Positions 17,458 through 57,488 of a DNA stretch of 64,000 bases are shown here, one piece after another. A program made the translations under genes and the position numbers. The notes below the pieces were generated by a model. That model saw only the letters and a program-made list of their open reading frames with translations. It did not search any database and had not been told where the DNA came from. How positions within the stretch are numbered: position 1 is the stretch's first letter; each line of letters opens with the position of its first letter. Source of the DNA: a virus; IMG/VR virus record IMGVR_UViG_3300035670_000034, positions 62,001-126,000 of that record; one strand, given 5' to 3'.

Positions 17458-18835
17458 ATCTAACCAGAGTTTGGGAGTTCACAAATTGTGGTGTAGGTGC
17501 CCCCGCGCACACCGAGAGCGTCGAAAAAGTCCCGCACACTTTTGGTCTATGGGGTTGGCAAACGCCTGTTCGCTTACGGCAACGACGAACACTCGTTCGC
17601 ACCCTCCAAATAGCGTCCCGATGAGCGCAAGAGCAACGCTGAACAACACCACGCCCAACCATAGCACAGGTCAAATACACGTCCCGTTTGCCGAAGTGGT
17701 GCGCCACAAACCTGAGTGTGTCGCAGAAATAGTCGCACTCAACGCCATACACGCCCCGTTTGCCATATCAGTCGTGTATCGCAGTCGCAACACGCCGTTT
17801 CACTACGCCCCGTTAGGCGCATAGCATTGTGTGTTGTTACGCATACGCATACGAAGTTGCCCATCACCTAGCCCCGTAGCGCATAGCGTTTCGCATAGCG
17901 CAGCGCAGTCGCATACGCATACGCCCCGTATTCATTAGTCTTTTCGTGTGTGTCGCATACGCATTTCGTATCGCTTGTCGCATCTAGCCCCGTGAGCCAT
18001 AGCCATAGCAACACGCAGGCACACATACACGTCCCGTATGCGCCGTGCGCTGGTGTGTGTGAGCATACGCATAGCCAACCCATAGCCACTATGCCCCGTA
18101 TGTCGCATACGCATTCAGATACACACGCCCCGTTGAGTTTTTCGCAGGCTTCACGGGTGACCTACGGGCATACCCTACCTATGACAACACCACACACCAC
18201 CACGCATCTAGTCCCGTAGGTAGTGATAGGTATTTGTAATCAGTAGTCACGCACCATAGCAAGCCCATACCCCTACCCCTATGTGTGTCGCATCTAGCCC
18301 CGTAAGCACTACACCATAGGGATACCCCCACACCACGCCTACCGTGTGTGGCTTCATCTAGCCCCGTGACGCATACAACCTTTCGTAAAGGACTTGATAC
18401 TTAGCCGCCCCGTGTTTTCGCAAGGCTCACGGGTGGCTTACGGGTGCTTACACCTACCTACACCACTGCCTACACCACACACGCATCTAGCCCCGTAGGC
18501 ACTTGACTACACGCCACCTGCCCATAACCACATTTGGTCGTTGCTGAACATAGGCCCCGTAGTCGCCTATCGCAGTCAAGCGATACGACATCTCGCTTAT
18601 GAGAGTGCTTCACTATGCCCCGTATGGCGTGTGAGAGACTGAACACGGCGCAAGAGCCGTGTGTCTACTTGCGCCCCGCACAACATAGTCGCAGAACAGC
18701 ACTTGTAGACAAACGATAATCAGCCCCGTACAAAACACGGATTTTGAGGGTTTTTTCAGCGTTTTTAGTGCTGTACTCAGCGCACTCAGCCCCGTGCCAT
18801 AATAAAAGAACCCGATTACACCAAAAAGGACTTGT
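17458..18835 (+). repeat. 1.4-kb non-coding array of GYCCCG units
   Basis: No credible gene. The hexamer GCCCCG or GTCCCG occurs at 17529, 17615, 17681, 17753, 17807, 17871, 17923, 17987, 18031, 18093, 18127, 18211, 18297, 18361, 18407, 18490, 18554, 18617, 18673, 18723 and 18789, always on the + strand.
Spacing is 34-86 bp, usually near 60. A longer core CATCTAGYCCCGT is shared by five units (17981, 18205, 18291, 18355, 18484) and ACGCATACGC strings fill the spacers. Two longer stretches (about 18141-18215 and 18417-18495) are degenerate copies of one another. It leads straight into the giant gene. An origin, centromere, packaging or protein-loading region are options; none is proven. Confidence 0.8.
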
Positions 18836-21800
18836 GTGACGCAACTTGGCCCCGAAAACAAAGACATTTACGAAGTTGATGTAAAAGACGGCAACCGTCT
18901 AGGTCGTCGCTTGTCTCGGGGCTTGAGGTCACTATCCAGAAGTGTCGGAAACACGGCAAGGTCGGGACTCGTTGTGGAACCATTTGACCCAAACGCATAC
19001 GACGGTGATGGTGACGGCATAATCCAAGACGGAACACAGTGGGAACGCCCCGCAGTGCTAAGAAGTCAGTCAATACCAAACGCAGACTTGCCCAAAACAC
19101 CTGATGCCGGGACTGAAACAGAAACAGAAAAGACACAAAAAGAGACAAGAAAACTCGTTGACGCAGCAGAGCGAGCCGGGACTCGGATTTCGCCAGAACG
19201 CTCACGGGTGACTACGGGTGGACTACGCAGTACGACAGTAACGCCGTTGCTTGACCCAGAGTGGCGAAGAACAGCAACGCCCCGAGAACTCGCTGAAATA
19301 ATCGTGCCAGACACGCTTGATGAAGCAGACGCACTAGCAGAACAGTTGGCAGTGCCCCGAAGTGCTTATGAAACCGAAGCAGACTACCAAAACGCACTAA
19401 AACTACTCAGAAGAACTCGGGACGCAGAAAGAGCCGCATCCAAGCGTCGTATGGAAGCACTTATCGCGATTTACGAAAAAAGACACCCCAAAACAACCAA
19501 AACAGGCTCGTTTGAGCGGGACCTAAGAGATGACCCTATTGAGTGGGACAAAAACCTCAAAAAAATCTTTGGCGACCAAAATGAGTGGGGCGAACAACTC
19601 GGGGCAACAAACAAACGGAGCGTTGAGCGGGCTCAAATAGAGTTTTTGGTCGCTTACAGAACAGAACTGGAACGGGACCCAGTAACAAACAAAACACTAT
19701 TGGACATAATAAATGAAATAGAAAACGCCTATCGAAACGGAGTGAGGCTCACGCACGGGGCTTTTTGGAGAGACAGTACTCACATACCAATCAGTCCCGT
19801 TGAGTATGTGCTTGCTCGTTTGTTTATGGAACACTCAAACCACCCACAAGACCCGTTGTTCATAACCGGCATTCGGGACGTAGTAACGCCGTCGGGCGAC
19901 ACCGACGCAGTTATCAGATGGGCGACTGAGTTCCTTGATGGATACCAAAGGTTCTACGAAGCACGAAAGGGGTCCCGTGCTCTTTCCAAGCAACAAATAA
20001 AGAACAGAATAGAAGTAGCAATGAACTCTGGGTCAAGAGGAGGCTTTTTCGGGACCCTTTTTGGTAGGGCTATTCCAAACGAACAATACATACAAACACA
20101 CCAAATGGTGGAAAGCAACGACCCTCGGGACCTTGCGCTACTACGGGCACTGTTACAAAGAACGCTAGAACAAAACCCTGAGTTTTTGGAAGCAGTAAGG
20201 AAGTTTGGACACCCGCCTCTCTATGTCCCGCACCGCGCTTACCATTTCATTGCCCCGCCAAGAGAGTTCCAAGAAAAGTTTTTGCTTGTTCCAGAAAGCG
20301 AACTAACGCCATCTGAACTGCGGGACAAACTTATTTCAGGAAAAGAATACGAAAAAGGTTTGCTTGAAGCAATCCGCGCCCAAGAACTCGGAAAAGGAGA
20401 TGTCACGTTCGGGGCAGGTGGACTACTTGGTGTACGGGCGGGACTTGGTGGACAGTATTCATTTCCTGATGGGCAAATAACACTTACCCCAATGCAACTG
20501 AGAAACACAATACTCAACCGCCCCGAGGCTGATGAAAACATAATCAACATGACCGGGACACAAGGCGCATACACGCTTGTTGGAGAACCAGCAATTCTCA
20601 TACACGAATTTGGCCATCACGTTGATTGGACTTTGCGCAACACCTTGTACGGGGCCTTGTGGGAGAGACGCAAGAGGGCTATTCGTGACTTTGCCAACGA
20701 CCCAAATAGAAATACAAGCCCCGACGTGTTCAAAGATTTTGTTCGTCAGCAGATAGTAGATTTTCGTGACGAACTAAAAGGCTTCACGGGCTTGGTAGAC
20801 CCCGATAACCCAAGCAAGTTGTCCGGGGCATCAGATAGACAAAACATTCATAGAAGTCGCTTGAAGTACTTAGGAGTGAACGTCCCCAGACAAGGCCCCG
20901 ACGAAGTTCCTGTTGGTAGTCGTCTGTTTGACCCATCAACGCTAACCGACGAAGAACTAGATGACCAAATAAGGGAAATAGCGGGGCAACTAGATGAAAT
21001 TCACGGAATGGTCGACATGCTGACTGGTCGCCAGCAAATACGACGAATGAAAGAAAACGGCACGTGGCAACGTGGCATCCACCCATCAGAAGGAGACGTA
21101 GGCGATTACGCCATAAACAGCCCCGAACCTTATGTAACTACGCCATACGGAAATAGCAGTGCGATTGAGCGTTTTGCTGAAATAACAGCGTTTGTTTTGT
21201 CCCGCAACGGACAAAAACAGCCTGTTGCGGTGAATAACGCCGCCGTGCGTCTATGGGCTCGGATACTTGGCATAGATGTAGAACCACAAGATGTTGTTTC
21301 TCAGTCCCGTCGCAAAAGACTTCCTTCGGGTGGCTACTCAGACGAAATGGAAGACATAACAAACCGCATACTCTCAGACATAAAGATTGTTGCGCCAGAT
21401 GTTCAGAGGCAGCCAGACGGTCACCGCCCCGGTTTGCAATCATCAACGTCATCATCAGATTTTCGTTTTGACCCAGATGAACGAAGCATGTTGCAGTCCC
21501 GTAGCAACATAGGCTTGGACACAGACCAACGCCTGTACGCACAAGATGAGCCGATAGGCGTTATGGATTTCATGAATAGGCCCCGTGTCTACTCAATAGG
21601 CGACCATCATTTCTACGATAACGAAGTTCGCTATGGCTCGCAGATGAGTTTTGCGATGAGAAAGCGACTTGGAGAACAAGCGGGACGCAGATACATCAAC
21701 AGAAACAGACCCCATCACGGAGATATGGTGCGGGCGATTTCAGCAACGCAGTTTGGACTGTTTATTGACGACCTTCCAACTTACGACACAACTACATCGG

Positions 21801-24800
21801 GGCAAATGAACGTTCTTCGTGGACTTGTTACGGGCAGAATAGCCAAACTACGCCCCGAAGAACGCTCACAAATAGAAGAAGCACTTAGAGACGCAACGAG
21901 AATACACTCGGCTATTTACGGCGCAACTCCGAACAAACGGGACACATACAGAGCGATAAAGACTGATAGAAAAACATTTTTGGAAAGCGTTGCCGTTGGC
22001 GACGAAATACCTATGCCGATTACGGCCTTCAGCCCCGATAAGCCCGACAACAACGAGAATGTGATTATCCGACTAGAAAAAGGCGCAAAAACCATAGATG
22101 TCGGCAACAGGCAAGTTCTTACTCAGGGCAATTTTGAGGTCGTTTCGGTTGATGACGACGGGACCCGTGTCATTGCCACGTTGCGCCATAAGGAAACATT
22201 TGACCCACGCCACGACGCACTTAGACCCGTGGACAAGTTTTCGGATAAGCCGAACGCAATGCGCAAGATGGGCAGTCCAATGCCCCGATACACCAGAGAC
22301 GAACAACAAAAGATGGAAGTTGATTTGGAGCGCAGACAGGACAAAGACAAAGTGTTTGGCTTGCGCTCAACAACGGGTATGGTCCCGGAGGATTTGAGCG
22401 AAAAAGAGATTGACGATTTCCTTGATGAAGAAGTGAACCTGTTTGAGGAAAAGCGGGTCCCGAAAGAAGTAGTTGATAAAGCGAAAAAGAATTTGCGTGA
22501 TTACTTGCAGAGAAGTGCTATTCGTCGTTTTGTCAAGACAAAGCAAGCCCTTATCCAAAAGTACGGGGCCGATAAGCCGTGGGAAAGAGACGCAGACGCA
22601 ATACGCAAATGGAGAGCAATCGACAGGGAAACCGCCGCACGGGTAAGCACAGTCCTGAGACGCAGCCTAAGAAACGCAATTGACAATAGAACTCGGGACA
22701 TGATGGATGCCGACACGGGCGAATTGTTTGACGACGCAAAGGTTGGCTTGTCCAGAGTACTGGACAGGTTCAACTATTACATAAACGACTACGAAGGTAT
22801 TGACTTGTCAGCGGGGCAGATTAGGCATCTTCTCGAAACTGGTCAGTTCGTTTACTGGAGACGGGACGACGAACTGTTCCCAACTGAGAAAATGGTAATC
22901 AATTTGCCAATCAACTCACCAGAAATGGCAGAACTCAAACAGGTTTTGGAGACGACACTTCCAGCATTGGAGGCGATGTCTCGGGCTTACTTGCTCGATG
23001 GTTCGGTCGACGTCCCGAATGCCAACAGAAGCATTTGGGAAGACCCAAAGATTGGCGGAAAGATAATCCTCAACAACGAGGAGTTGAACATAGTCCCGAA
23101 CGGTAAGGGCGTTTATGCAATATTCCAGCCAGATGGTTCTGAAAGCATAAGCCTTGTTGCGAACGCATCTTTTGGAGTTGGCAGCCAACGACCCAATGGA
23201 ACAACTGGTTTTACTCGCAAAATAGGGCTAGACCGGGACGGGAATATTGTCATTGGTCATGACCGTTTCTGGATGGGCAGCAAGGACAGAGAACGCAAAG
23301 GTTCTGGTGTGGCGACGCTATTCAACCAGCATTCGTTTTTGTGGTGGAAGCAGCATGAGGGCACTGAGGTTGTGGTCCCGAATGCCGTGAGTGACGGCGT
23401 GATTGTGTGGCCACGTCAAGGTTTCCGTCGGATTGGTCAAGCACGACGGGACGCATTGGAAGAACAAGAAGGATTTTTCCATATGGTCAGGGCTTTGGTG
23501 CTGAAATCAAAACGACAAGAACTGTTTGACGCAAACCGTCCCGAACGCGGGGGAACGGCAGAATACGAAGCGGCGCAGTTGGTGAAATACGTTGATGATG
23601 TTGATAGTAAATACGGACTTGATAATCCAGAGTTTGCAAAACGCCTAGTGAACTGGCTTGCGCTTGCTCGCACAGCAAATGATAATCAAAGCCCCGAAAC
23701 AGACCTCATCAACATATTGGCAAACATTATTGAGCCAAGAGAATTGAACGACAGCCAACGCCTGAGTTGGGCTGAACTGTTTGGACAAGTAGCGAAAAGC
23801 AATAGTTTCAGCATGTTTTTGAATCGGGACGAAAGCGACAATGACTACCTACCATCATTCGTCATCCCAGACCCGACTGACGACCTAGACCCGATGGAAG
23901 TACAACGCCAAATAGAGCGTGGCAGATTGTTGCGCCAAGAGTTGGAGAACTCACAGGCCCCGAGCGAAGTATCAAGAGATATTTACTTCCCAGAAGATGA
24001 CAAGGAAATTTCTAGCAACCGACTGCTTGGGGAAAGACAAGCGGGACGCCTATTTGCAGCCGTGAACATAGACGAAGCGACCAGTTCGGATACACGAACT
24101 TTTTCCTCAGCACGGGCATTCATGTATGCGAGAGAGGGTTCTGGCTTCAACGTCCCGCCAAGACTTCTCACACGGGTGGAAACAGAGGAACGAATTAGCA
24201 GGGGTGAAATACCCCTCTATGGTTGGATTGACCTCAATCGTGTCGGCATTTACACGAGCGACAGAAACAACATGCAAGAACTTTACGAGCAACGAGTTCG
24301 CAACAATATGGTCGGACTGGCGGGGCCGAGTGAAGTCATGCGTTTCACCGATAAGCCATTTGACCACATTGACGATTTCCACGACACGAACAATCCAGTT
24401 ACAGACCCAGCAGCAGTTCGCAGTGGAATGCTTGGCTACCTAGCCCCGTGGGCTCGTGTTTACAAAGGTAAGCGAAATGCTTTGCCAGAAATGTTTTGGG
24501 GCAACAGCACGGAGATTTCAATCGCAAGAGACATGCGGGACAGGGGCGATTTTGATGGTTTGATGGCTTTGCTTGTCAATAAGTTTGGCGAGGAGGTAGA
24601 TAACTCGGTGATGGGCACGGACGTTGCGTTAGTAGAAACCCTAGATGGATTTTTGCCAAATGGAAACTCCGAAACAGCACAGACGGGACGCCGAGTGTTG
24701 GGGGCATTGTTCCAAATTGAAAATAATCGAAGAATGGCCGAAGCAGGTATCTCAACGGCAATTAGGCAAGATAAGATACAAGGACTTAGAGATGGCTTGC

Positions 24801-27800
24801 TTGCCATCATGGCAACAGAGTTTGACCAATCATTGCTGGTTTTGATGGGATATGACGCAATACAGCACAAAGACGGGGAGTTCACAATCCTCAACAACAT
24901 GGCTGTCGAACTAATGGATGAGCCAGTTTCGTTCGCCCAAGCAGCGAGGATGATTGACGACCCGAGATTCAGAGCCATACCGTCCGATAGGTCCCGTTAC
25001 TCAACGTTCATTGAAACAAGACTTGTGGATAACCCTGACTGGTTTAGTGGCGACGACCCACGCCTGCTTGCCGACGAACCCATTTCTCTTACAAAAGCGG
25101 GTTTGAACAGTTCGACATACATAAGGTCTGTGCGTCAAGACCACAACATCAACCTAGAACGGGGACTACGCAGTAGAACACGGGGCTCGATTGCAAGCGC
25201 AAGAGAAAGACAGCGCCGAGAATCAGCAAGAGAAGGTAAGTCAGATGGGTGGGTAAATCCTGACGACGCATCATTCAAACAAGAAGTTGTAGAACTCGAG
25301 GGTCGCTTCAACGCGTTGGTTGCCCAACTTGAGGAGTGGGACGATAGGAACCTTGAACTCGACCGCCCCGATTGGGCCGGCCGCGAAGAAATCAAGAAGC
25401 AAATGGATGAAATCTCGGACCAGTTTGCGTCACTCATCAACACATCTAACATCGTCATTGAGAAATCCATGGAACACCAGGCGCTCATTGACGCCCTTGA
25501 CGCCATAATCAACGAGCGGGACGCCGACTACCTAGACGGGCGACCAAAGGTGAAAGATATTTCGCCAGAAATGCTTGACAAGATAAGGGCGTTGCGGGAT
25601 AAACTGGTACAAGAGAAGCAAGATAATCCAGGCTTGCTTGACTTCACACGGGCACGTGTCAGACACAAGACAATCAAGAACGCAATGGAAAACTTCGACC
25701 TTCAGTACGAGGTTCGTTGGTTCAATAATGAACCTGACACAGTTGAACTTGAAGACGTAGTCAAAGCGGATGTTTCCGACAAGGCCGAGGCTTTCGTAGA
25801 ACACATTTATCGTGGTCTGTTCGACGAAAGATACGACGCTTGGAGGGAGTACATGAAGCCGACGATGGCATTCGGCGTACCCCTTTACGACTCGACTTGG
25901 GAGTTGGGCCACAAGAGAGTTGGCGAACTGTTTGACGGGGTGAGCCCTGATGAACGGGACGCTTGGAGGGCGGCGCACAAGGACTTCCTCGATAGTGAAT
26001 ACAACGCAGAATACGAAGAGGACATCATCGACTCAACACCAGTCGGTGGTTCGACCAGACCACGTGACGTCCCCGCCCCGATTTGGCGTAAAGTCAGGGC
26101 TGCCATGTCACGGGCACGCTCAACTCCATACAACGGCGAGAAAGAGGCTGCCACAAACGCAGCGATACGACTCCTCAATCCACACCGACCAGATTTGGCT
26201 AACGAAGACTTTGTTTCGGGCATTAGGTCGCACACTATTGTCAGCACACCTCGGTCGGTAGTGAACTTCTCTTCCAAGCAAATGCGGGGCGCCAGCCCAA
26301 CCTCTCCAACAACCGCAATTGAGAACCACGCATTCTCACGCATCATTGATGAGGTGAGGAGCCAAGGCATAGAAATAGAAGAAGCAGACCTATTGCCCAC
26401 TGGTAAGTACGGAAGCAAGTTGCGCCAGATTATGGACGACAACCAATCCACACAGTCGGTTAATTGGTTGATTAGACAAACAGAAGACGACCCAGTTCTT
26501 TCTGCCGTCGTAAATGCGGCGATAAAGCAGGCTCGACTCACAATGGGCATAACCCCAATCGAGGGTCACAGAATCAAAAAGGTGAACGGCCCCGTTGATG
26601 AGGAGATTGCTGATGTTCTCGTAGACGACATCGACTTGGCTTTGTTGCGTAATCAGGGTGCGCCAACCTATGACCAAATTATCCAAATAGCAGCAGCAAA
26701 ATACATAGAACACGATAGACTGAACAAAGCATTCGGTTCTTACCAAGACCCAGAAGGCAAACTCATCGGCGCTGGCTTTACCCGCATCGACAAAAACAGC
26801 ACTGCCTACCTGACGACGATGACCAGCGCCCCAGACGTTGATGGGAAAGACTACGTCTATAGGGACATTCGGGGCAACGAGGTTGCCCGCTTAAAGCGTT
26901 ATGACAGCGTGAAGTCAGATAACGTTGCAAGTCGCAAACCAAAAACCTTGAGTAATTTCGCCACGCAACACTCACTCATCAAGACCAATGACGCCATTTT
27001 CGGGGTAATGGCGGAGGCGGTTGAGTTTACGGGTGACTACGAAAATGCAAGTTTGAAGAAACTAAGGGCGACTATAGAAGAACTACAAAGCATTTACAGG
27101 AACTTTGAGTTTGCCCCGACTCCAGCGGGCCAACACCTGAAAAAACTATTTGAAGCGAACCTTGAAAGCGAAGTAAAAACTTTAGAACTTCTGGAAAGAA
27201 TTGGGCAGCGATATGTACACCTGTTGCGTGAGCGGGGCATTTCGGACAAAGAAATAAGAGAGATGCTCTCAACCGTCAGGAAACAAACACTCAAGACAGC
27301 CGTTGACCCCGTGGGGAGGGAGGACCTATTCCTGAATGGCAGCCCGATTCCAATCGGCAGTTCCAATGACGGAACAGTCGCAGAGCAGGCACTTTATGGC
27401 TTTTTGAACAGCAAACTCGGTAGTGCCATGCTGCCCCGTTTCGCCGACTCAGACGCACCTGCTGGTTTTCACGAGATTGGTCACTTTTCTTTTGGCCAAG
27501 CCTTCTCACGTCACGGTGAGTTCGTCGCCAATGCTTGGCCATTCTTTGTGCATGGCGACGCATTCTGGAGGTCGTTTGTCGCCTTACAGCGCAATCAGGC
27601 ACCCACCTTTGACAAGTGGACAATATCTGAGCATCTTGGGAAAGCCCTGAGCCCCGAACAGAAAGCAGCCTTCAAGGATGCCTCAAGGCTCATAGGCAAA
27701 ACACTTAGCCGAGACTTCGTCGCTGCATTTGAGAGAGAAAGATACATATCTCTTGGCGATTCAGAACGACAAATAATAGCCTCGGATGTCATTGCGGCAG

Positions 27801-48352: not shown

Positions 48353-48379
48353 ACTTGGACCTTACAGGCAATAATCACT

Positions 48380-48867: not shown

Positions 48868-49142
48868 TTCACAGCCTCGTTTGCCAGAAACTCACTTGTT
48901 AGACCCTCGATGGCTTCCTTGACGCCATCGGCGGTGAAGTGCCTGTAATCCTTAGCATCTTCTTCGCTCACCTCAACGGCGTCCCATGGTCTGTCCCAAT
49001 CAAGTAGTTCAATCTCAACGATTGGGGCGGTTGAGTACGCACCCTCGTCGCTGAAACTAATGGTCGGGTCGTCGTCGTCCTCGCACTCGTAAAGGTACTG
49101 AACGTTGATTTCAACTGTCTGATGAATGATGTATTTCTTCAT
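48864..49142 (-). CDS. Hypothetical acidic protein, 92 residues
   Basis: MKKYIIHQTVEINVQYLYECEDDDDPTISFSDEGAYSTAPIVEIELLDWDRP... acidic beta-rich. First gene of a three-gene unit, E1 at 49150. Confidence 0.7.
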   Translation of the reverse strand: MKKYIIHQTVEINVQYLYECEDDDDPTISFSDEGAYSTAPIVEIELLDWDRPWDAVEVSEEDAKDYRHFTADGVKEAIEGLTSEFLANEAVK

Positions 49143-49168
49143 GCGTAGACCTTACAGGCAATAATGGT

Positions 49169-49336
49169 TTATGACAACGGCTGAACGTCGTGCCTCGTAC
49201 ACCAACCGTCATAGCAGTCGTCGCATAGAAGCACATTTTCCTCATACACGCGTTTGCCATCTTCGGTGGCCCCGGTGGGGGCTAGATTCCAGTGTTCGCC
49301 TAGGTCAACTTCGCACCAGTGGCAGGTTCGGTTCAT
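49169..49336 (-). CDS. Zinc-ribbon protein, 55 residues
   Basis: ATGA overlap. MNRTCHWCEVDLGEHWNLAP... LLCDDCYDGWC has two C-x2-C pairs. Function unknown. Confidence 0.68.
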   Translation of the reverse strand: MNRTCHWCEVDLGEHWNLAPTGATEDGKRVYEENVLLCDDCYDGWCTRHDVQPLS

Positions 49337-49737
49337 GACTTACCCTCCCATTTCAACCGCTCATCGCTTCCCTCTTCTGTCCAGAATGGGAACCCGACGA
49401 ACTCGTTAAAGATGCAGAAGTCGTCGTACTCGGTGCTTGGCTCTTCGCCCCACGATGTACCGCCAGTAATACGCAACTCACGATTGCCATCAAGTGTGAT
49501 GCCCGATACGTCACGATTGCCATCACAGCCGTACACAAGGTCTATTGCGTCAGAGATGCGTTCCTTGACACGGCGTTGTAGGTCATCAGACCATTCCTCG
49601 TCGGTAAAGCCGAAGAAACCGCAGTCCTCCATGCGACCCAAGTCAGTTTCGGTGATTACCAAGCGCTCAAGACGCTTACGGCAGTCTTCTATTGACTCCC
49701 GAATCTCAACGGTCGCAAGTATTAGGTCAGCACCCAT
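49333..49737 (-). CDS. Hypothetical protein, 134 residues
   Basis: ATG 49737, one base after the upstream stop. An N-terminal helix (TVEIRESIEDCRKRLERLV) precedes a Gly-rich alpha/beta part with ELRITGGTSWGEEPSTEYDDF and FPFWTEEG. Not recognised. Confidence 0.7.
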   Translation of the reverse strand: MGADLILATVEIRESIEDCRKRLERLVITETDLGRMEDCGFFGFTDEEWSDDLQRRVKERISDAIDLVYGCDGNRDVSGITLDGNRELRITGGTSWGEEPSTEYDDFCIFNEFVGFPFWTEEGSDERLKWEGKS

Positions 49738-49738
49738 T

Positions 49739-50020
49739 TCAGATGACTTCCCCATCAACAGTGGTCGTGAGACCGTGAGTGTGTTCGGAATGCATCTGCT
49801 GGTACTCGGGATAGGTGTTCCCAATAATTTCGTGCGGGTTGGACTCTTCGTAGCACTCCAGATTCAAAGAACCATCGTCGTTGAACGATAGGACAACGTT
49901 GTAGATGGTGTCTTTAGTGCCGTTGGAGCGGACGATGTTCACTTCTGCGACGCAGGGAGCATCATCCCAGTCAATAAGCGGAATGTCTGCAATTGGGATG
50001 TTTAGTTCGTGTTTCTTCAT
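49739..50020 (-). CDS. Hypothetical protein, 93 residues
   Basis: MKKHELNIPIADIPLIDWDDAPCVAEVNIVRSNGTKDTIYNVVLSFNDDGSLNLE... beta-rich. E1 upstream at 50028. First of a three-gene unit. Confidence 0.7.
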   Translation of the reverse strand: MKKHELNIPIADIPLIDWDDAPCVAEVNIVRSNGTKDTIYNVVLSFNDDGSLNLECYEESNPHEIIGNTYPEYQQMHSEHTHGLTTTVDGEVI

Positions 50021-50047
50021 ACCTGCAACTTACAGGCAATAATTAGT

Positions 50048-50251
50048 TTAAACAACCTCTTGGGTTTCGGCCGTCATCAGGTATAGGCGAATGTCCAGAA
50101 GAAGGTCGGTCATTTCAGACGAAGACACAAGGTCCCTACCCGAAATGTCGGCAATTGCCTTATCCACGAGTTTCAAGGCTTCGCCGATTTCCGGGACCCC
50201 GACACTTGTGCTATCCACTGCGGTGGTGGAAGACTCAACCATGGTATCCAT
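50048..50251 (-). CDS. Hypothetical protein, 67 residues
   Basis: MDTMVESSTTAVDSTSVGVPEIGEALKLVDKAIADISGRDLVSSSEMTDLLLDIRLYL... Ser/Thr-rich start, then helices. E2 at 50211 lies antisense within its first codons. Not recognised. Confidence 0.65.
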   Translation of the reverse strand: MDTMVESSTTAVDSTSVGVPEIGEALKLVDKAIADISGRDLVSSSEMTDLLLDIRLYLMTAETQEVV

Positions 50252-50586
50252 TATACAAACTTACACAGTATGGCGTGAGTATCTTCGCCATTCCACTCGA
50301 CATCAAAGCCCTCGTTGCGTAGTGCGGACACGATAATGTGCGCCCCGCCGTTGTCGTGATAAATGTATTGGTAATCATTGCGAGCATTGCCACTATCTCT
50401 GGCAAAGGCAAGGTAATTACCCTGGCCACCATACGTCCATGCAACAGGTGTGCCTGGTTTGTAGTTGGGTTCCATGTCGGCTGCTGCACATGTACGGCAA
50501 CAATCCATGCGATTTAGTTGGGTATAGACCCCAAGTTTTGCCACTGCTCTCCATGCAGCATTCCAGCGTTGTCGCTGAGTTCTCAC
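50251..50586 (-). CDS. DUF6891-like protein, 111 residues
   Basis: GTG 50586 overlaps the upstream stop. CCRTCAAADM, then YIYHDNGGAHIIVSALRNEGFDVEWNGEDTHAILC, follows the CC-x2-C and G[LF]xVxWxG pattern of a small bacterial family I recall as DUF6891. Identification is by memory of the pattern only. Confidence 0.65.
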   Translation of the reverse strand: MRTQRQRWNAAWRAVAKLGVYTQLNRMDCCRTCAAADMEPNYKPGTPVAWTYGGQGNYLAFARDSGNARNDYQYIYHDNGGAHIIVSALRNEGFDVEWNGEDTHAILCKFV

Positions 50587-50861
50587 AGCAGTTCCTCCAA
50601 GGCACTATCCCAATCAGTGTCGTTTTCGCCAAGGGTATTGACGAAGTAGTACATCTTGCTGAACCTCATTGACTGCTTGTGAAAGAAGTTGTAAAGTTCT
50701 TGCGAACCCTCGCCGTACTTATCGCAAAGTTGGGCGAACTCCTCCAGAATGGCGTCCCTCTCCTCTTCGGGAAGGTTGTTGAAAGACTCAACCACTTCGC
50801 TCCAGACCTTCGCCTGATAAGCCTCGTGGAGGAGGTTGATGAATTCGGTGTCGTTTTCCAT
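50583..50861 (-). CDS. Hypothetical helical protein, 92 residues
   Basis: MENDTEFINLLHEAYQAKVWSEVVESFNNLPEEERDAILEEFAQLCDKYGEGSQELYNFFH; fully helical and acidic. E1 at 50870. Possibly anti-sigma-like by length, but no evidence. Confidence 0.7.
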   Translation of the reverse strand: MENDTEFINLLHEAYQAKVWSEVVESFNNLPEEERDAILEEFAQLCDKYGEGSQELYNFFHKQSMRFSKMYYFVNTLGENDTDWDSALEELL

Positions 50862-51075
50862 GTGTTGCACCTTACAGGCAATAATTACTTATTCCAACCC
50901 CCATGTGCGCATCCGCGCGCCATGGAAGACTCATCCTACAGGCATTAATGGGTTAACGCTCGCGAGCCCCGGATATACCAGACGTGCTGACCGTCACAGA
51001 CATTGCAGGTTGTCAAACTACGTGGCTATCCACTACGGTGGTGGAAGACAGTTATAACCAATAAGGAGAAACCAC

Positions 51076-51471
51076 ATGAAACCACGGCTAGTTAGTACGC
51101 CATCAACAGAAGGGGCGCTGCACACAATTGCATATGCCCGTAATAAAGATGGCCGAATTGACCTTGATGCATACAAGGGCCTAACTGGGACTATTGAATC
51201 AAACAACCTAAAGATTGATGTAAAAATCAACAACGCTCGAGTTCGTTACGGGCATCTCGATTTGAATGTCAGTCCGATGTCCGGGGCTGGCGAGGTATGG
51301 GTTGAGCGAAAGAATATTGAAATCAACAACGACCCTGCGGCCAAGGCCCCCGTGGCAAAGATGAAAACTCGCAAAATTGACGAATCAAAACCGGAAAACG
51401 CGTTTCCGAAGAACGACATCAAGGAAATGATTCGGATGATGATTCAGGAAGAGCGCCAAAAGGCCGTCTAA
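51076..51471 (+). CDS. Hypothetical protein, 131 residues
   Basis: AAGGAG seven bases before ATG. N-terminal beta domain (YARNKDGRIDLDAYKGLTGTIESNNLKIDVKINNARVRYGHLD), linker, basic C-terminal helix. An E2 copy at 51026 precedes it by 28 bases. First + gene of region 4. Not recognised. Confidence 0.72.
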   Translation: MKPRLVSTPSTEGALHTIAYARNKDGRIDLDAYKGLTGTIESNNLKIDVKINNARVRYGHLDLNVSPMSGAGEVWVERKNIEINNDPAAKAPVAKMKTRKIDESKPENAFPKNDIKEMIRMMIQEERQKAV

Positions 51472-51689
51472 TAACGGCCCGGCCGCAAGTCTTCCCGAAG
51501 GTATACCACATCTCCGTCATCTTTGGATTCGATGGCGGAAGATGTGGGAACCTCATCTGTGTCTGCCTTCACAGGGGCCTCTTCTGATAATTCTTCAGAA
51601 CTTTCTTCTTCCGCCGCCGGCTGCGGCTCAAAATGAATTCGCTCAAGTTTTTGGTTGGACCCGAGGGCCCCGTGATTGTTCCCGGCCAT
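51468..51689 (-). CDS. Disordered acidic protein, 73 residues
   Basis: MAGNNHGALGSNQKLERIHFEP... followed by PAAEEESSEELSEEAP; Glu/Ser-rich tail ending REDLRPGRY. Convergent 4-bp overlap with 51076-51471. Not recognised. Confidence 0.6.
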   Translation of the reverse strand: MAGNNHGALGSNQKLERIHFEPQPAAEEESSEELSEEAPVKADTDEVPTSSAIESKDDGDVVYLREDLRPGRY

Positions 51690-51726
51690 GTTGTCTTACC
51701 TCATTATTGCCTGTAACGTGTTTGCC

Positions 51727-52161
51727 ATGCTAAATCTAACAGATGACTACATAGACAGTTTACCTGCGGACACACGACGCATCCCTGATGTTGAGCGTGG
51801 CCTATACGTATTACAGACGTGGCAGAAGAATGGGGCCAGTGGCTCACCTGCTTCATGGCTCAAAAATTACATGATTCGCTCAGAGGGTTTGATGTGGATA
51901 AATCAAAACATCATCCCAAAACTAGGCGTCGCCATCGTGGCCGAGGAAAAGACGGAAAAACGCAAGGACAAGTACGCCAAGTTGGAGAAACTTGCGCTGG
52001 ATAACCTGTATCACGAATTCACGACCCAGCAACTCGCTGATGAGTCGGGGCTCGGCGCACAAACCATTAGCAAGTGGGCAAAGACCACTGGTTACTTCCG
52101 AGTAATAGGGCGTGGCAAGTGGGAAGCCCGCAATCCAAAAGATGACCGCAAAAACGCCTAG
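51727..52161 (+). CDS. HTH-containing protein, 144 residues
   Basis: Start ATG 51727 follows a + strand E1 copy. The C-terminal part has FTTQQLADESGLGAQTISKWAKTTGYFRVIGRGKWEAR, a helix-turn-helix. The N-terminal part ends with MWINQNIIPKLGVAIVAEE. Likely transcription factor for the MoxR/VWA operon 38 bp downstream (inference). Confidence 0.75.
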   Translation: MLNLTDDYIDSLPADTRRIPDVERGLYVLQTWQKNGASGSPASWLKNYMIRSEGLMWINQNIIPKLGVAIVAEEKTEKRKDKYAKLEKLALDNLYHEFTTQQLADESGLGAQTISKWAKTTGYFRVIGRGKWEARNPKDDRKNA

Positions 52162-52198
52162 GGTTGTCTTAACTCATTATTGCCTGTAAGGTACAAGT

Positions 52199-52921
52199 AT
52201 GACAACTACAAACACCACCACCAAACTCCCCGAGTGCTGGCAAGCACTTGAGGATGTACTTACCAACAACATTGACCGAGTCATCTTGTTTGGTCCCCCA
52301 GGGACAGGCAAGACGTACGCAGGCATGAATTTCGGCAACGTGGGTAACGGCTCGTTCCGCATCACCTGCACCGAGGACATGACCAACCTGAACGTAGACG
52401 GCGCTTTCATGCCGACTAGTGACGGCAAGGCTTTCAAGTGGTATGAGGGTTCTGCTCTTAAGGCATGGCAGGCAGGCGGTCGTCTCGTCGTGGACGAGAT
52501 TGACAAGGCTGGCTCCGACGTGTTCGCCACGCTACTGAACTTCCTTGACTCTCCTGAGTCTGCATCGTGGGAGCATCCTGAGAACGGACAGATTATCCGT
52601 CCCTCCAATGGATTCTCCGCAGTGATGACCACCAACGTTGAGGACATGGACGAATTGCCCGAAGCGTTGGCCGACCGATTCCCTGTTCGGATTCGCATCA
52701 ACCAGCCACATCCCAATGCACTGCGTCGTCTCTCACGAGACCTGCGTGAGGTTGCGGTTAACTACGCCGACGCTGGACGAGACCGAATTTCACTGCGAAC
52801 GTTCATGGCCTTTGACAATCTCCGAAACTCAATGGGCGACGAACGTGCCAGCAAGATTGTCTTTGGGCATCGTGCTGACGGAATCATGGATGCTCTCAGG
52901 GTTAATGCGGTGGCATCGTGA
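52199..52921 (+). CDS. MoxR-type AAA+ ATPase
   Basis: 240 residues. Walker A GPPGTGKT (32-39), Walker B LVVDEID (96-102), then MTTNVEDMDELPEALADRF with the sensor and arginine-finger region. MoxR-family AAA+ proteins assemble rings that act with VWA partners as metal-insertase or chaperone complexes; CobS of the cobaltochelatase is a relative. E1 (+) lies upstream, GTGA overlap with the VWA gene. Confidence 0.9.
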   Translation: MTTTNTTTKLPECWQALEDVLTNNIDRVILFGPPGTGKTYAGMNFGNVGNGSFRITCTEDMTNLNVDGAFMPTSDGKAFKWYEGSALKAWQAGGRLVVDEIDKAGSDVFATLLNFLDSPESASWEHPENGQIIRPSNGFSAVMTTNVEDMDELPEALADRFPVRIRINQPHPNALRRLSRDLREVAVNYADAGRDRISLRTFMAFDNLRNSMGDERASKIVFGHRADGIMDALRVNAVAS

Positions 52922-54471
52922 CCACAAAAACCACGATTGAACCACACGCACTAACACGGCGTGATAGACCGACACTGCGCTGGAGCGTTGAAGAAGTCAT
53001 CGCCAAGCGTGGATACGCCAAGACCGACATCATCGGGCGCAAGATATATGCGCCTGCTGGATTGTCGGAACTTGAGCGTGTCGTACGTGCGCACGAGTTG
53101 ATGCATGCCAGAATCACACCTGCCGAAGAAATTGGTGATTGGATTAAACGTGGCGTTGCGTCAAAAGATTCAATCTATGCAGTTGAAGAAGTGCGTGTTA
53201 ACTACGCAATTCAAAAGGCTGGCTTTGATTTAAACGAACTGACCGACGGCAACGAAGATGCTGACGGCGAACTTGCAGTAATCCAAAACAATTGGGAGGG
53301 TGCCGTTCGTTTTGCGGTCGCTACCGCTGGCACTGCTGGCGGTAAACGATTTCTCGTCGGCGTGCGTCGCCAATCAAAACATTGGGCGAATGCTCTTCAA
53401 CGAATCCAAAAACATATTTGGAAACAAATTGAGGGTGCCGACACTGGTCGTATCGGCCGTAAGCGTGTAGTGAGGGAACCTTTGTTCTCAACCGAGGTAC
53501 ATAAGTACATCGGGCTTGCACCTGCTGGCTTTGCGTGGACCGAGCGTTGGGCTGAGTACCTTGACCGACTTGGTGCGATGCAACCGCCTGAAAAGAATCC
53601 GACCACGGCCAAGAAAACAAAGAAATCAAGCACCGAGGCCGAGGGTAAAGAAGATGAATCCGACAAGTCCGAGTCCGAGTCTGGCGACAAAACTGATTCT
53701 GAAGAATCAACAGAAATTGCCAATAAAGGTTCTGAGGATGACTTTGAAGAACGTATGCGTCGGATGAATCCGCTCTCATACAGCCGTGGTAGCGAAGAGT
53801 GGAGCAAACTCCTATGGGGCAAGACAAAATTGTCTCGTGTCTCAAAGGGTGCTCTTGGCAAGAAGCGCTATGCGATGCAATACGGTCGCAATCCACGACG
53901 CATCGGGCGACTCTACACTGACCCACAACGTCGTGTGTTTGACCACGAGCGTCGTGCCAAGGGTGGAATTGTCCTGATTGACGGTTCTGGCTCTATGGCA
54001 CTTGACCGTGATGACGTTCTCAAGATTCTGCAAGTGGCACCAGGTGCGACTGTCGCAATCTATTCCGACATGGATGAGGGTGAGGGCCGTTTGCCAAACA
54101 TCCACATTCTCGCAAAAGACGGAAAATGTGTTGAGGAAAAAGACATGCCAGATTTTGGCGCTGGCAACGGCGTTGACTTCCCTGCTCTTGATTGGGCGAT
54201 TAAGGAACGCAAGAAGAAGGAACCTGTCGTTTGGGTAACTGATGGCGGTGTGTGCGTTGCCAACAGCGGATTTAATCATTCGCTAGCGGTGCAGTGCATC
54301 AATCACGCCAAGCGCCATAAAGTAATCTGCGTTGACCACGTTGATTCGGCAATCAAACAATTGCAGGCTCTGAACAACGGACAGACTGTCCGAGTCAAGT
54401 ACCCTCAGTACTTCACTCAAGTCATCAACCACTTGGGCGGTATGGACGAAGAACAGGTAGTCAAGAAGTAA
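52918..54471 (+). CDS. VWA-domain protein with N-terminal metallopeptidase-like HELMH
   Basis: 517 residues from GTG 52918. AHELMH (58-63) is an HExxH zinc-peptidase signature as in DUF2201_N proteins. An acidic Ser/Lys linker follows (about residues 222-270), then the VWA fold with the MIDAS DGSGS (355-359) and VVWVTDGG. The pair MoxR plus this protein resembles CobS/CobT-type and DUF2201 systems. Acts presumably with the ATPase; the target is unknown. Confidence 0.85.
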   Translation: MTTKTTIEPHALTRRDRPTLRWSVEEVIAKRGYAKTDIIGRKIYAPAGLSELERVVRAHELMHARITPAEEIGDWIKRGVASKDSIYAVEEVRVNYAIQKAGFDLNELTDGNEDADGELAVIQNNWEGAVRFAVATAGTAGGKRFLVGVRRQSKHWANALQRIQKHIWKQIEGADTGRIGRKRVVREPLFSTEVHKYIGLAPAGFAWTERWAEYLDRLGAMQPPEKNPTTAKKTKKSSTEAEGKEDESDKSESESGDKTDSEESTEIANKGSEDDFEERMRRMNPLSYSRGSEEWSKLLWGKTKLSRVSKGALGKKRYAMQYGRNPRRIGRLYTDPQRRVFDHERRAKGGIVLIDGSGSMALDRDDVLKILQVAPGATVAIYSDMDEGEGRLPNIHILAKDGKCVEEKDMPDFGAGNGVDFPALDWAIKERKKKEPVVWVTDGGVCVANSGFNHSLAVQCINHAKRHKVICVDHVDSAIKQLQALNNGQTVRVKYPQYFTQVINHLGGMDEEQVVKK

Positions 54472-54640: not shown

Positions 54641-54850
54641 ATGAATGGCAAGACTCTTGCAGGAGAGAGACGCGGCCAGGCGGCTCAGCGCAGAAACGTC
54701 AATTTCGCGTTGACGATGTCGCAGTTCGAAGAACTTCAAGACATGGCCATGATGGCGGACATGCAGATATCCGAATACATCAGATACGCGATTTTCGGGG
54801 CCGCCGCTGCCAGGCGGCCGCGCAACCAGAGGAGCGCGCCGCAGCAATGA
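54641..54850 (+). CDS. Ribbon-helix-helix-like protein, 69 residues
   Basis: ATG 54641 has AAGGAAG nine bases upstream. RRNVNFALTMSQFEELQDMAMMADMQISEYIRYAIFG is the strand-helix-helix of Arc/MobC-like proteins. ATGA overlap with the YGGGK miniprotein. Confidence 0.72.
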   Translation: MNGKTLAGERRGQAAQRRNVNFALTMSQFEELQDMAMMADMQISEYIRYAIFGAAAARRPRNQRSAPQQ

Positions 54851-54951
54851 GAAGTTCTAAAAAGTTTTTTTTCTTCTGGTTCACCCAGTTGATGTCGCGC
54901 GTCATTTCACCATACGGTGGTGGAAAGCAACGTCCTAACTCCGGCGCATGA
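54847..54951 (+). CDS. 34-residue miniprotein ending in SPYGGGKQRPNSGA
   Basis: ATGA overlap with the RHH gene. A hydrophobic N-terminal helix (KKFFFFWFTQLM) precedes the E2-encoded tail SPYGGGKQRP. It is one of two intact genes that translate E2. The 3' end overlaps the convergent membrane gene by 17 bases. Confidence 0.55.
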   Translation: MRSSKKFFFFWFTQLMSRVISPYGGGKQRPNSGA

Positions 54952-55180
54952 ACGCGCGGTCCCACACCCGTAGGAAGTTGAATCCCAAAATCAAACTCGT
55001 ACAATTAACCCAAGAAAGTTTCCATGAGATTGCATCGATTGACCAGAAGAGCCGCACCGCCAGGTAGAGGGCCAAAGAATAAACCAGGCTTGAGAACACG
55101 AAGTTCAAGAAACCAGACAAGATTTGCTGTTTTGCCTGTTCCTGGAATTTCCGGAACTCCTCCATCTCCGGATGGCTCAC
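54935..55180 (-). CDS. Two-TM membrane protein, 81 residues
   Basis: ILSGFLNFVFSSLVYSLALYLAVRLFW and KLSWVNCTSLILGFNFL are membrane helices after a charged N-terminus. ATGA overlap with the upstream HA-domain gene. Function unknown. Confidence 0.68.
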   Translation of the reverse strand: MSHPEMEEFRKFQEQAKQQILSGFLNFVFSSLVYSLALYLAVRLFWSIDAISWKLSWVNCTSLILGFNFLRVWDRAFMRRS

Positions 55181-55557
55181 TGGGAAACCTGAGAATTTTT
55201 GCGAACAATCTGGTGAACGCGTTGGCGAGAAAGTTCAAACTCATCAGCAATAAAGCGAAGAGATTTTCCGCCGCGATGCAAGTCCAATATCTTGGAGTTT
55301 CTGTCGGAGTTCGTAGCCGGCCCTGGGCGCAGCGGGCCCCATTGCCAGTCGCGAATTTGCTCGAGTCGCTGAATCTTTTCCTGGCTCAATTGCCCCTTGC
55401 GGCGACGCTGTCGAAGATACCCAACCCAAGAACCCAGCGGAACGGGGTTGCCATCGACCTCCTCGATGTGATTGGCCGGGACTCGACAGTGGTCTTCCCG
55501 CGCGACGAAGTTATTAAGGGCTGTAATTGTTGTGTTAAAACGGGTAACGTTGTCCAT
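55177..55557 (-). CDS. Helicase-associated (HA) domain plus HTH protein
   Basis: 126 residues. FNTTITALNNFVAREDHCRVPANHIEEVDGNPVPLGSWVGYLRQRRR...LEQIRDWQW is a helicase-associated domain; LHRGGKSLRFIADEFELSRQRVHQIVRK is a sigma70-region-4-like HTH. A DNA-binding regulator is likely. Confidence 0.8.
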   Translation of the reverse strand: MDNVTRFNTTITALNNFVAREDHCRVPANHIEEVDGNPVPLGSWVGYLRQRRRKGQLSQEKIQRLEQIRDWQWGPLRPGPATNSDRNSKILDLHRGGKSLRFIADEFELSRQRVHQIVRKNSQVSQ

Positions 55558-55679
55558 GTCGAAGACAATAGCAAATGCATTTAAGCCTCAAGTTGATATT
55601 TTGAAACTTTAATTAGAAATAGTTTTTGACAAACCTTTACGGTGGTGGAAAGCAACTCGTTGAGTGGTACTATCTAGGG

Positions 55680-56063
55680 ATGGAAGACCACGACGAACAA
55701 GATTTGGCTAGATTTGTCGAAAGAGTCAGAGAAGATATGGAGTTTGGGGAAACAGATGGCGGCCCCAATCGAATCATTGCTTCATGCCAAGACGTCGAGT
55801 CGGACATATACCTGCTGATAATGGCCGTGCCGCGCGAGTCCCTGTCCGATGGCGTGGGCCCCGAGTTATTCCAGACACCAGATGAACATAAGTTTCTGGC
55901 CTGCCTAAACGAGGAAGTTCTTTGGGCAAAAGCAGATGAAATAAGTGAAGAAAATATTTTCTACACAAGCCAGGAAAAAAATGACCTGATGGCTGAATTT
56001 ATTGCGGACTTTTTGCCGCCGCTATTCGAGCGCGCTCGAGAAATGATTCCGCTAGATATTTAA
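55680..56063 (+). CDS. Hypothetical acidic protein, 127 residues
   Basis: MEDHDEQDLARFVERVREDMEFGE... with central IYLLIMAVPRESL and helical end. The frame extends upstream through E2 to TTG 55626 (TNLYGGGKQLVEW), so the E2 peptide may be its N-terminus. Not recognised. Confidence 0.68.
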   Translation: MEDHDEQDLARFVERVREDMEFGETDGGPNRIIASCQDVESDIYLLIMAVPRESLSDGVGPELFQTPDEHKFLACLNEEVLWAKADEISEENIFYTSQEKNDLMAEFIADFLPPLFERAREMIPLDI

Positions 56064-56480
56064 GCGCCTTGGTGGTGGAAAGGTTGGGGACTGCCGCCAG
56101 AAGAACCCAACCACCGAAGAAACACACTTCGTGGCGGCAGCCCCGCTACGCGACCAAGGGGGAAAGGGGGGGAACACCCTGGCCACGCAATTATCGAAAG
56201 TACCACAGAGATTTGTTGTCCCAGTGTAACTTTTAAAAATTTTGTCGAAGTTGCATGTTTTGCCGCCGGGTGCTGCTAGCGTGAGCCCCGTTCCGCGTTT
56301 CGCGTTTCCTCCCTGGGGCAAGGGGCGCGGAACAACAAAATACTTCTGCGCAGGAAGACCAACCATCAAAAACAACACCCAAAACTGGGTGCCGGCGGAG
56401 CCTTGCCAAAAATCAAAAGTTTTAAGCAAAGGTTCCCCCGGACCCCCTCCAAAGTTCAACACTCTAAGAAGTGTTCAATT
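56064..56480. other. 417-bp gap with several hairpins
   Basis: No credible gene. Stems: CTGCCGCCA/TGGCGGCAG (56090-56139), GTTCCGCG/CGCGGAAC (56290-56333), CACCCA/TGGGTG (56376-56391) and AACACT/AGTGTT (56458-56475). Three GYCCCG/CGGGRC-type hexamers lie here or nearby. Structured leader or non-coding RNA is possible. Confidence 0.5.
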
Positions 56481-56567
56481 ATGAAGGGCCGTAAAAACAA
56501 CAAAAGAAACTTCGGTTCATTTACGTCCTCTATCTCATACGGTGGTGGAAGACCGAGGTTGCTATAA
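56481..56567 (+). CDS. 28-residue miniprotein ending SISYGGGRPRLL
   Basis: MKGRKNNKRNFGSFTSSISYGGGRPRLL, basic N-terminus and the E2-encoded C-terminus. Together with 54847-54951 it indicates that E2 can be translated as YGGG[KR]. A small hairpin lies just upstream. Confidence 0.45.
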   Translation: MKGRKNNKRNFGSFTSSISYGGGRPRLL

Positions 56568-56593
56568 ATACAGAAATGGTGTATCTTGAGGTG

Positions 56594-56950
56594 ATGATGA
56601 CGACTAAGCGTTTCAGACTCACCAAGGCTGAGAAACAAGAAAAAGCCATCTCTGACCGGAAGAAAGAAGAACTCGTTTCTCCCGAAGATATTTTGGCCGT
56701 TTTTAACCACTGGGTCGAAACCCACAAGAAAGACGCGCGCCGCAAACCTGTCCTTGATGCAAAGCGCCGCAGATTGCTAGCCGTTGCCATCTACGACTAC
56801 AGCGTCGATGACTGCATGGCGGCCATAGACGGCTGTGCCAACTCCCACTTCCACATGGGACAGAACAAGCAGGGAAAGGTCTACAACTCCCTGGAACTGA
56901 TATTCCGCTCTGCAGAGTACATCGAGCGATTTATTGGCTACAACGAATGA
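56594..56950 (+). CDS. Hypothetical protein, 118 residues
   Basis: GAGG precedes ATG 56594/56597. A Lys-rich N-terminal helix then SPEDILAVFNHWVETHKKDARRKPVLDAKRRRLLAVAIYDYSVDDCMAAIDGC...LIFRSAEYIERFIGY resembles phage replication-loader-like helical domains. Function not certain. Confidence 0.7.
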   Translation: MMTTKRFRLTKAEKQEKAISDRKKEELVSPEDILAVFNHWVETHKKDARRKPVLDAKRRRLLAVAIYDYSVDDCMAAIDGCANSHFHMGQNKQGKVYNSLELIFRSAEYIERFIGYNE

Positions 56951-57030
56951 GGACCGGGGCTATCGTGGTTGCCATGCTTGCTTTCTACGCAGCACTGGCG
57001 GTGGCGGATAGGAGAAAGGGCCGGCGATGA
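56947..57030 (+). CDS. 27-residue single-TM miniprotein
   Basis: ATGA overlaps at both ends. MRTGAIVVAMLAFYAALAVADRRK is a membrane helix with a basic tail. Perfect four-base couplings to two neighbours support that it is translated. Confidence 0.6.
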   Translation: MRTGAIVVAMLAFYAALAVADRRKGRR

Positions 57031-57488
57031 CAGAAGAAGAAATCGGCAAATTTATTAAAACCTTGTACTACACGTACGACCGGGTACTTGTCCCCAAGGA
57101 AGTCAAAGAGTTCAGCACGGCATGGAAGCCATACGTGGGCGAGTTTGACTATGAACTCGCCCAACAATTATTGCCCAACATTTGTATGGGTAAAGAATTT
57201 CCCCCACGGCCATGGGAGGTTAGAGTTTTCCTCGTAAATTACACCAAACAAATTACCCCTGCTCCATCACCCCAAGAAGCGTGGGGACAGTACCAAGAGA
57301 TAATGGCAGCAGTCACGAACGGGACTTCCGCAAACGTACGGATACATGATGCGTTGGTTGCGACCCTAAAGGCCATGGGGGGTATAGGGCTCAACAACCA
57401 GTTCGACGCCAAGCGATTTGAAGAACTTTACAAGGATAAGGTTAACCAATGGATGAAGAACACGTACTGGATGGGCGATAAGCAATGA
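57027..57488 (+). CDS. Hypothetical protein, 153 residues, replication-loader-like
   Basis: GKFIKTLYYTYDRVLVPKEVKEFSTAWKPYVGEFDYELAQQLLPNICMGKEFPPRPWEVRVFL has the layout of phage replisome organisers/helicase loaders (replicative helicase-loader fold). Only the pattern supports it. Neighbours: two TM miniproteins by ATGA. Confidence 0.65.
   Translation: MTEEEIGKFIKTLYYTYDRVLVPKEVKEFSTAWKPYVGEFDYELAQQLLPNICMGKEFPPRPWEVRVFLVNYTKQITPAPSPQEAWGQYQEIMAAVTNGTSANVRIHDALVATLKAMGGIGLNNQFDAKRFEELYKDKVNQWMKNTYWMGDKQ

What the first reader, a model, noticed from the sequence alone, without database searches (positions are those of the whole stretch)
17529..57325. GYCCCG/CGGGRC hexamer confined to one 40-kb compartment
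Reading both strands I find no GCCCCG, GTCCCG, CGGGGC or CGGGAC in 1-17.4 kb or after about 57.4 kb, where chance would give about one per kb. From 17529 it is everywhere: 21 copies in the 1.3-kb gap, about one per 60 bp at the start of the giant gene in both orientations and all frames, then about one per 100-250 bp through 50 kb and fading by 57 kb (none seen in the MoxR/VWA genes). Coding and non-coding DNA share it, so DNA-level selection acts. Candidates: binding site of a phage chromosome-organising or replication protein, a recombination or exclusion signal, or a methylation/restriction mark. Avoidance outside is as striking as enrichment inside.
Basis: seen in the sequence. Interest (0 to 1): 0.88.

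Follow-up and report, generated by a model that had tools for sequence, protein, structure and literature searches.

The report
Evenly spaced DNA mark over phage region
A bacterial virus from lake water and its relatives carry about 40-200 copies of one six-letter DNA word, evenly spaced over a single block of the genome, through genes and gaps alike, and almost never use it elsewhere, which points to an unknown protein that marks or packs that part of the viral chromosome.

Summary
The window lies in a 136-kb actinobacteriophage record that holds 199 GYCCCG/CGGGRC sites, all between 17529 and 57325; the other ~96 kb hold none. Codon-preserving shuffles reject chance both ways: 84 sites against 11±3 in the 3355-codon gene, and 0 against 31±5 outside. 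Best reading: a binding-site field for a sequence-specific DNA protein that builds a nucleoprotein domain; the protein is unidentified. I found no known equivalent. Restriction, polar motifs, inserted repeats and composition fit poorly.

The parts
17529..18794 (+). Non-coding array: 21 GYCCCG sites, all on the + strand, spacing 34-86 bp (mean 63, CV 0.22), usually followed by T
   Evidence: homologous array in L017 (10 of 10 on +, spacing 44-86 bp); gaps weakly phased at ~10.2-10.5 bp in both arrays (P about 0.003-0.006); units between sites show little RNA structure (mean z -0.5)
18836..28903 (+). Giant gene (3355 aa, HEFGHH metallopeptidase-like motif, no Pfam, PHROGs or NCBIfam hit) with 84 sites in both orientations and all frames; spacing widens from ~73 bp to ~190-235 bp along the gene
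   Evidence: motif read in the sequence
28904..52198 (.). Accessory/early zone with 87 sites: many small minus-strand genes with start-associated sequences, SSB, HDAC-like gene; sites lie mainly upstream of the small genes
29037..52191 (-). 34 copies of the start-associated sequence TTGCCTGTAAGG (31 on the minus strand), most often 7 bp before a start codon; differs in each relative while GYCCCG is constant
52199..54471 (+). MoxR-type AAA ATPase gene (52199-52921) and companion 517-aa gene (52918-54471): site-free stretch inside the fading end
54796..57325 (.). Last seven sites; includes an O-like replication-initiation gene (56576-56950) and a helicase-loader-like gene (57027-57488); right limit of the field, matched in relative G024
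15013..16983 (-). SNF2-type helicase gene just outside the left edge: no sites here, but 9-10 evenly spaced sites in relatives G002, G003, G005, G006 and G007, where it lies inside the field
37164..37388 (-). XRE/Cro-type HTH gene with an invariant recognition helix in seven relatives; near the site median in G003, G005 and G006; weak candidate for the site-binding protein

Best explanation
GYCCCG/CGGGRC is the short recognition site of a sequence-specific double-stranded-DNA-binding protein, phage- or host-encoded, that builds a nucleoprotein domain over the accessory/early block of the phage chromosome. In this phage it is nucleated at the dense, same-strand non-coding array at 17.5-18.8 kb and carried outwards by evenly spaced single sites whose spacing widens with distance. 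Sites are kept off the rest of the chromosome so that the domain stays bounded. The most likely use is to insulate or silence the block as a unit (between small transcription units, not inside them) at some stage of infection. Shown: sites under selection at DNA level, even and distance-graded spacing, confinement, avoidance outside, orientation indifference in genes, conservation in relatives, exclusion from genes with start-associated sequences. Inferred: that a protein binds, that it forms a domain, that the array nucleates it, and that the outcome is insulation or silencing.
For: Codon shuffle: 84 against 11±3 inside, 0 against 31±5 outside. Protein-compatible position null: CV 0.22-0.30 against 0.76-0.85 in the first 4 kb of the giant gene; CV 0.14-0.15 against ~0.8 in three helicases. 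Gap grows with distance from the array (rho 0.75, P about 2e-20 over 11.5 kb; doubling about every 5.7 kb). Orientation 41:43 in the giant gene and 29:28 in helicases. Site conservation 93/160 against 23% for controls, above all 157 control hexamer families. One field over the homologous region in relatives at about 50-85% protein identity. Loss of sites when the helicase lies outside. Sites depleted in small genes with start-associated sequences and concentrated upstream of them. Weak helical phasing in two arrays and fixed AGCCCCG-N16-19-CGGGGCT pairs in G021/G023.
Against: No binding protein identified; the best gene candidate (XRE) fails as a predictor. No helical phasing inside the giant gene. 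The field peaks at the array in this phage but over the start-associated-sequence zone in relatives, so the array is not a universal nucleus. In distant relatives (G021, G023) the pattern is mostly intergenic inverted pairs. Silencing is not tested at all.
Confidence: 0.5

Rival explanations
1. Recombination or repair field: the sites are signals read by a recombinase or exonuclease (Chi-like), placed regularly so that ends or exchanges inside the accessory region are handled, and avoided elsewhere to protect core genes from exchange.
For: The field coincides with the gene-content-variable accessory region. Even spacing caps the distance to the nearest site.
Against: Known Chi-type signals are polar, whereas coding sites use both orientations equally. 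No exchange breakpoints at sites were shown. The smooth gradient away from an array is not expected.
Confidence: 0.12
2. DNA-entry signal: the field controls staged or ratcheted entry of the genome, with the array as a stop and the graded sites as a brake or pull, comparable to two-step transfer in T5.
For: One-sided gradient ending in a non-coding array at the boundary between the early block and the replication genes in this phage.
Against: Relatives have two-sided humps without a sharp edge. Circular contigs G011, G021 and G023 end at different genes, so no fixed physical end is visible. T5 itself was not examined here.
Confidence: 0.1
3. RNA-level elements: the sites are stems of intergenic hairpins (terminators or leaders) between small genes, and the coding copies are secondary.
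For: Convergent pairs with 22-54 bp spacing upstream of start-associated sequences; fixed inverted repeats in G021/G023. In L345 the units between 23 same-strand sites fold stably (mean z -3.3).
Against: 84 sites in one open reading frame and ~9 in helicases are single, both-stranded and evenly spaced. Units between sites in this phage's array, the giant gene and a helicase show little or no structure (mean z -0.5, 0.0, -0.3).
Confidence: 0.08
4. Restriction or modification mark: GYCCCG is a target of a host restriction/BREX-type system, avoided in most of the genome and tolerated or modified in one block.
For: Strong avoidance outside in several relatives (G016 1 against 23; G024 0 against 10; G021 9 against 38).
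Against: Restriction pressure does not make evenly spaced enrichment. No N6_N4_Mtase or C5 DNA-methylase hit in this record; one each in G009 and G011.
Confidence: 0.05
5. Compositional or assembly artefact, or spread of an inserted repeat.
For: The accessory block is somewhat richer in G+C.
Against: Codon shuffles keep composition. Independent contigs and related species show the same pattern. In helicase alignments the sites arise by substitution, not insertion.
Confidence: 0.01

Closest known systems
Stoperators of Cluster A mycobacteriophages (L5/Bxb1-type immunity repressor sites)
   Same: Many copies of one short asymmetric site across an actinobacteriophage genome; paper read: PMC9283540
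   Different: Stoperators are 13-bp sites, just over twenty per genome, oriented with transcription and losing function when reversed; here a 6-bp core, 199 copies, no orientation preference in genes, confined to one block and evenly spaced
Start-associated sequences and extended SAS of Cluster K mycobacteriophages
   Same: Repeated element just upstream of start codons of small genes, and an upstream inverted-repeat element with variable spacer whose consensus differs between phages (PMC3203893); TTGCCTGTAAGG-N7-start and the convergent GYCCCG pairs resemble these
   Different: ESAS repeats are 17 bp and intergenic, upstream of about half of the SAS genes; GYCCCG also fills long coding genes without SAS and keeps one sequence across relatives
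17-bp palindromic repeats of Cluster O mycobacteriophages (Corndog)
   Same: About 34 copies of a conserved short sequence in intergenic and coding DNA, no meaningful orientation (PMC4351075)
   Different: Palindromic and longer; no even spacing, gradient or confinement was described in the passages read
parS fields, KOPS/AIMS, Chi and GATC clusters of bacterial chromosomes (own knowledge)
   Same: Short sites that mark a chromosomal zone; parS and GATC are dense near the origin
   Different: KOPS, AIMS and Chi are polar; parS sites are few 16-bp palindromes; none combines even spacing, a smooth gradient from an array and near-absence elsewhere
phi29 protein p6 and other viral histone-like proteins (own knowledge)
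   Same: Phage-encoded protein that organises a large stretch of the genome in a phased complex
   Different: p6 reads DNA bendability, not a fixed hexamer

Membership tests
Stoperator-type repressor sites | Sites oriented with the direction of transcription | tested here: not met
   41:43 in the giant gene, 29:28 in helicases
Stoperator-type repressor sites | Bound by the phage immunity repressor | not testable with these tools
   No binding data; XRE gene found but not linked to site density
SAS/ESAS | Located immediately upstream of start codons of small genes | tested here: not met
   Met by TTGCCTGTAAGG and by the intergenic pairs, not by the 84 sites in the giant gene or the helicase sites
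Chi/KOPS/AIMS (polar DNA motifs) | Strand bias relative to a reference point | tested here: not met
   No bias in coding DNA; only the non-coding array has a single orientation
Restriction/modification target | Depletion genome-wide, with a cognate methylase where sites are kept | tested here: not met
   Depleted outside but strongly enriched inside; no hit in this record for the two methylase families searched
ParB-parS partition complex | ParB homologue with a site-reading HTH domain | tested here: inconclusive
   ParB_N-like proteins are encoded in all four complete or nearly complete genomes (G000, G011, G021, G023), in this record beside a PAPS-reductase-like gene; only the ParB_N domain was found
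Sequence-specific nucleoprotein domain | Sites act as double-stranded DNA, either orientation, with conserved positions and spacing | tested here: met
   Sequence signature only:
Sequence-specific nucleoprotein domain | A protein occupies the sites in vivo | not testable with these tools
   needs pull-down or ChIP-type data

The most novel reading that the evidence does not exclude
A phage chromosome carries a written domain code: a six-base site whose spacing is kept even and widened smoothly with distance from a nucleating array, laid over coding DNA without regard to frame or strand, and purged from the rest of the genome, so that an unknown protein builds a bounded, chromatin-like domain over the early genes.
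Probability: 0.35. Interest if true: 0.93.

Novelty: categorically new. Interest (0 to 1): 0.87.

Why it matters
Coding sequence is rarely seen to carry a second, spatially graded signal this strong: near the array about two thirds of all places where the protein sequence allows the hexamer are used. If a protein reads it, phages have a sequence-encoded chromosome domain with defined edges, a simple test system for how spacing and density set domain size. It also marks the early block of a group of uncultured actinobacteriophages found in many lake samples.

Tried and rejected
Helical phasing in the giant gene: none; weak in two non-coding arrays only. Search of viral contigs for dense GYCCCGT triplets: mostly collagen-like or tandem repeats and chance, no unrelated phage with a clear similar array. 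Separate TCGA pattern: palindrome avoidance that differs between relatives, not the same phenomenon. XRE regulator as the binding protein: its gene lies at the site median in G003, G005 and G006, but XRE relatives such as L270 (68% identical, 1 site in 13 kb) and G011 (gene outside the field) do not follow. Physical genome ends at the field: circular contigs end at different genes. Terminase-small-subunit reading of the HTH gene 12875-13546: not supported by profile hits. Rfam: only tRNAs and one sub-threshold hit. Literature searches for the hexamer or an evenly spaced phage motif found nothing. The genome-contig scan gave no clear integrated relative; the best hit is a 4.8-kb contig binned with an Acidimicrobiia MAG.

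Full report
What the window is. The window is positions 62001-126000 of a 136,198-bp virus record. It encodes a tailed phage: primase/helicase, B12-type ribonucleotide reductase, SSB, endolysin, with terminase, portal and tail sheath in the rest of the record. WhiB-like regulators and the closest cultured matches (Arthrobacter and Gordonia phages at 30-45% protein identity) point to an actinobacterial host. Relatives come from environmental metagenomes; the freshwater reading is inferred from sample context and is not proven.

All 199 sites lie between 17529 and 57325; the rest of the record, about 96 kb, has none. Codon shuffling that keeps each protein and its codon usage gives 11.2±3.0 for the giant gene against 84 observed, and 30.7±5.2 for genes outside against 0. 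Enrichment inside and avoidance outside are two separate facts, and both are far from chance.

Spacing. In the non-coding array the gaps average 63 bp with CV 0.22, against about 0.93 for random placement. In the giant gene I compared the observed sites with random choices among all positions where synonymous codons could make the hexamer. In the first 2 kb 28 of 44 such positions are used, no gap is shorter than 27 or longer than 106 bp, and CV is 0.30 against 0.76. The gap grows with distance from the array: 63, 73, 98, 133, then about 190-235 bp, a log-linear slope of 0.122 per kb, or a doubling every 5.7 kb. Beyond 11.5 kb the trend is looser. Coding sites use both strands (41:43) and all three frames (36, 26, 22). 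A signal read in RNA or in protein would not do this.

Relatives. A helicase search brought relatives whose contigs I read in full. G002, G003, G005, G006, G007, G009, G011, G021 and G024 each have a hump of the same hexamer over the homologous accessory block, and G023 a weaker one; outside it sites are few (G016 1 against 23 expected; G024 0 against 10; G011 10 against 31; G021 9 against 38). G023 (36 against 57) and the distant G012 (12 against 14) show little avoidance. The hump is smooth and in most relatives two-sided, lying over the zone of small genes; the sharp left edge and the array are specific to this phage and its nearest relatives (L017).

The helicase as a natural experiment. 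In G002, G003, G005, G006 and G007 the helicase gene lies inside the field and has 9-10 sites at ~210-bp spacing; in this phage and in L014-L015 the homologous gene is site-free (one site at its end in L017 and L018). The sites arise by substitution at aligned codons, sometimes in another register or orientation within a few bases. Over 14 pairwise comparisons 93 of 160 sites are conserved (58%), against 23% pooled for control hexamers, and no control family of 157 reaches the target. The pairs share genomes, so they are not independent.

Link to start-associated sequences. The block carries 34 copies of TTGCCTGTAAGG, most often 7 bp before start codons of small genes; each relative has its own version. 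GYCCCG sites are rare inside these small genes (0.4-1.3 per kb) and frequent elsewhere in the field (3-4.5 per kb), chiefly within 150 bp upstream. G021 and G023 have fixed inverted pairs AGCCCCG-N16-19-CGGGGCT in the block; others have convergent pairs at 29-54 bp. L345 has a second kind of array: 23 same-strand sites at ~160-bp spacing in 4.5 kb without convincing genes, with stably folding units. So the hexamer may have been recruited into several element types.

Mechanism. The facts fit a double-stranded-DNA-binding protein that needs its sites at a controlled spacing over one chromosomal block and must be kept off the rest. I commit to a nucleoprotein domain (0.5), with insulation or silencing of the early block as the most likely use (about 0.3). 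The protein is unknown. The XRE gene at 37164-37388 has an invariant recognition helix and sits at the hump median in three relatives, but a wider search shows that it does not predict the sites. No hit for two DNA-methylase families was found in this record. ParB_N-like proteins are present in the complete or nearly complete genomes, in this record beside a PAPS-reductase-like gene, without a recognised HTH domain.

Limits. Gene calls in relatives are simple open-reading-frame picks. Several relatives are fragments, so 'one hump per genome' rests on G000, G011, G021 and G023 as complete or nearly complete maps. Fold z-scores used 40 shuffles. Helical phasing is weak and limited to two related arrays. 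That the block is early is inferred from its gene content. Nothing about transcription, binding or timing was measured.

Novelty. I found no description of an evenly spaced, distance-graded, block-confined short motif in a phage or bacterial chromosome; the library searched holds only openly licensed papers, so earlier work may exist. The nearest relatives in spirit are stoperators, SAS/ESAS and the Cluster O repeats; stoperators and SAS/ESAS fail on a tested feature, and the Cluster O repeats differ in length and symmetry.

Noticed in passing
window 29037-52191: Start-associated sequence TTGCCTGTAAGG, 34 copies, most often 7 bp before start codons; relatives carry different versions (G003/G024 TATCGGTCAT-type, G006 TATCCGTTATTA, G021 ACTTATCTATTA) although G000 and G024 share genes at up to 92% identity, suggesting exchange of regulatory specificity.
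   Followed up: partly
window 33343, 35833, 38692, 40056, 41563, 47964, 54916, 55641, 56071: Conserved element GGTGGYGGAAAG, mostly preceded by TAC and often by CTCTAT, also present in several relatives; function unknown.
   Followed up: no
L345:100-4900: About 4.5 kb without convincing genes: 23 same-strand GTCCCG/GCCCCG sites at ~160-bp spacing separating units that fold as long hairpins; possible array of non-coding RNAs.
   Followed up: partly
window 18836-28903: 3355-aa protein with a HEFGHH zinc-peptidase-like motif and no family hit; its N-terminal part codes for the densest coding site stretch. May be a polyvalent protein injected with the DNA.
   Followed up: no
window 31199-32164: Histone-deacetylase-fold protein (Pfam PF00850) encoded by a phage, inside the site field.
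   Followed up: no
record positions 19594-22062 (L002/L003): Two ParB_N-like proteins flank a PAPS-reductase-like protein, an IbrA/IbrB-like cassette; ParB_N-like proteins recur in the complete or nearly complete relatives.
   Followed up: partly
L055-L057 (G006), L060-L062 (G009): TCGA is absent from all 44 kb of G006 and nearly absent from 28-51 kb of G009: strong palindrome avoidance that differs between relatives.
   Followed up: partly
window 1480-3441: Phage-encoded B12-dependent ribonucleotide reductase, about 77-97% identical in several relatives.
   Followed up: no
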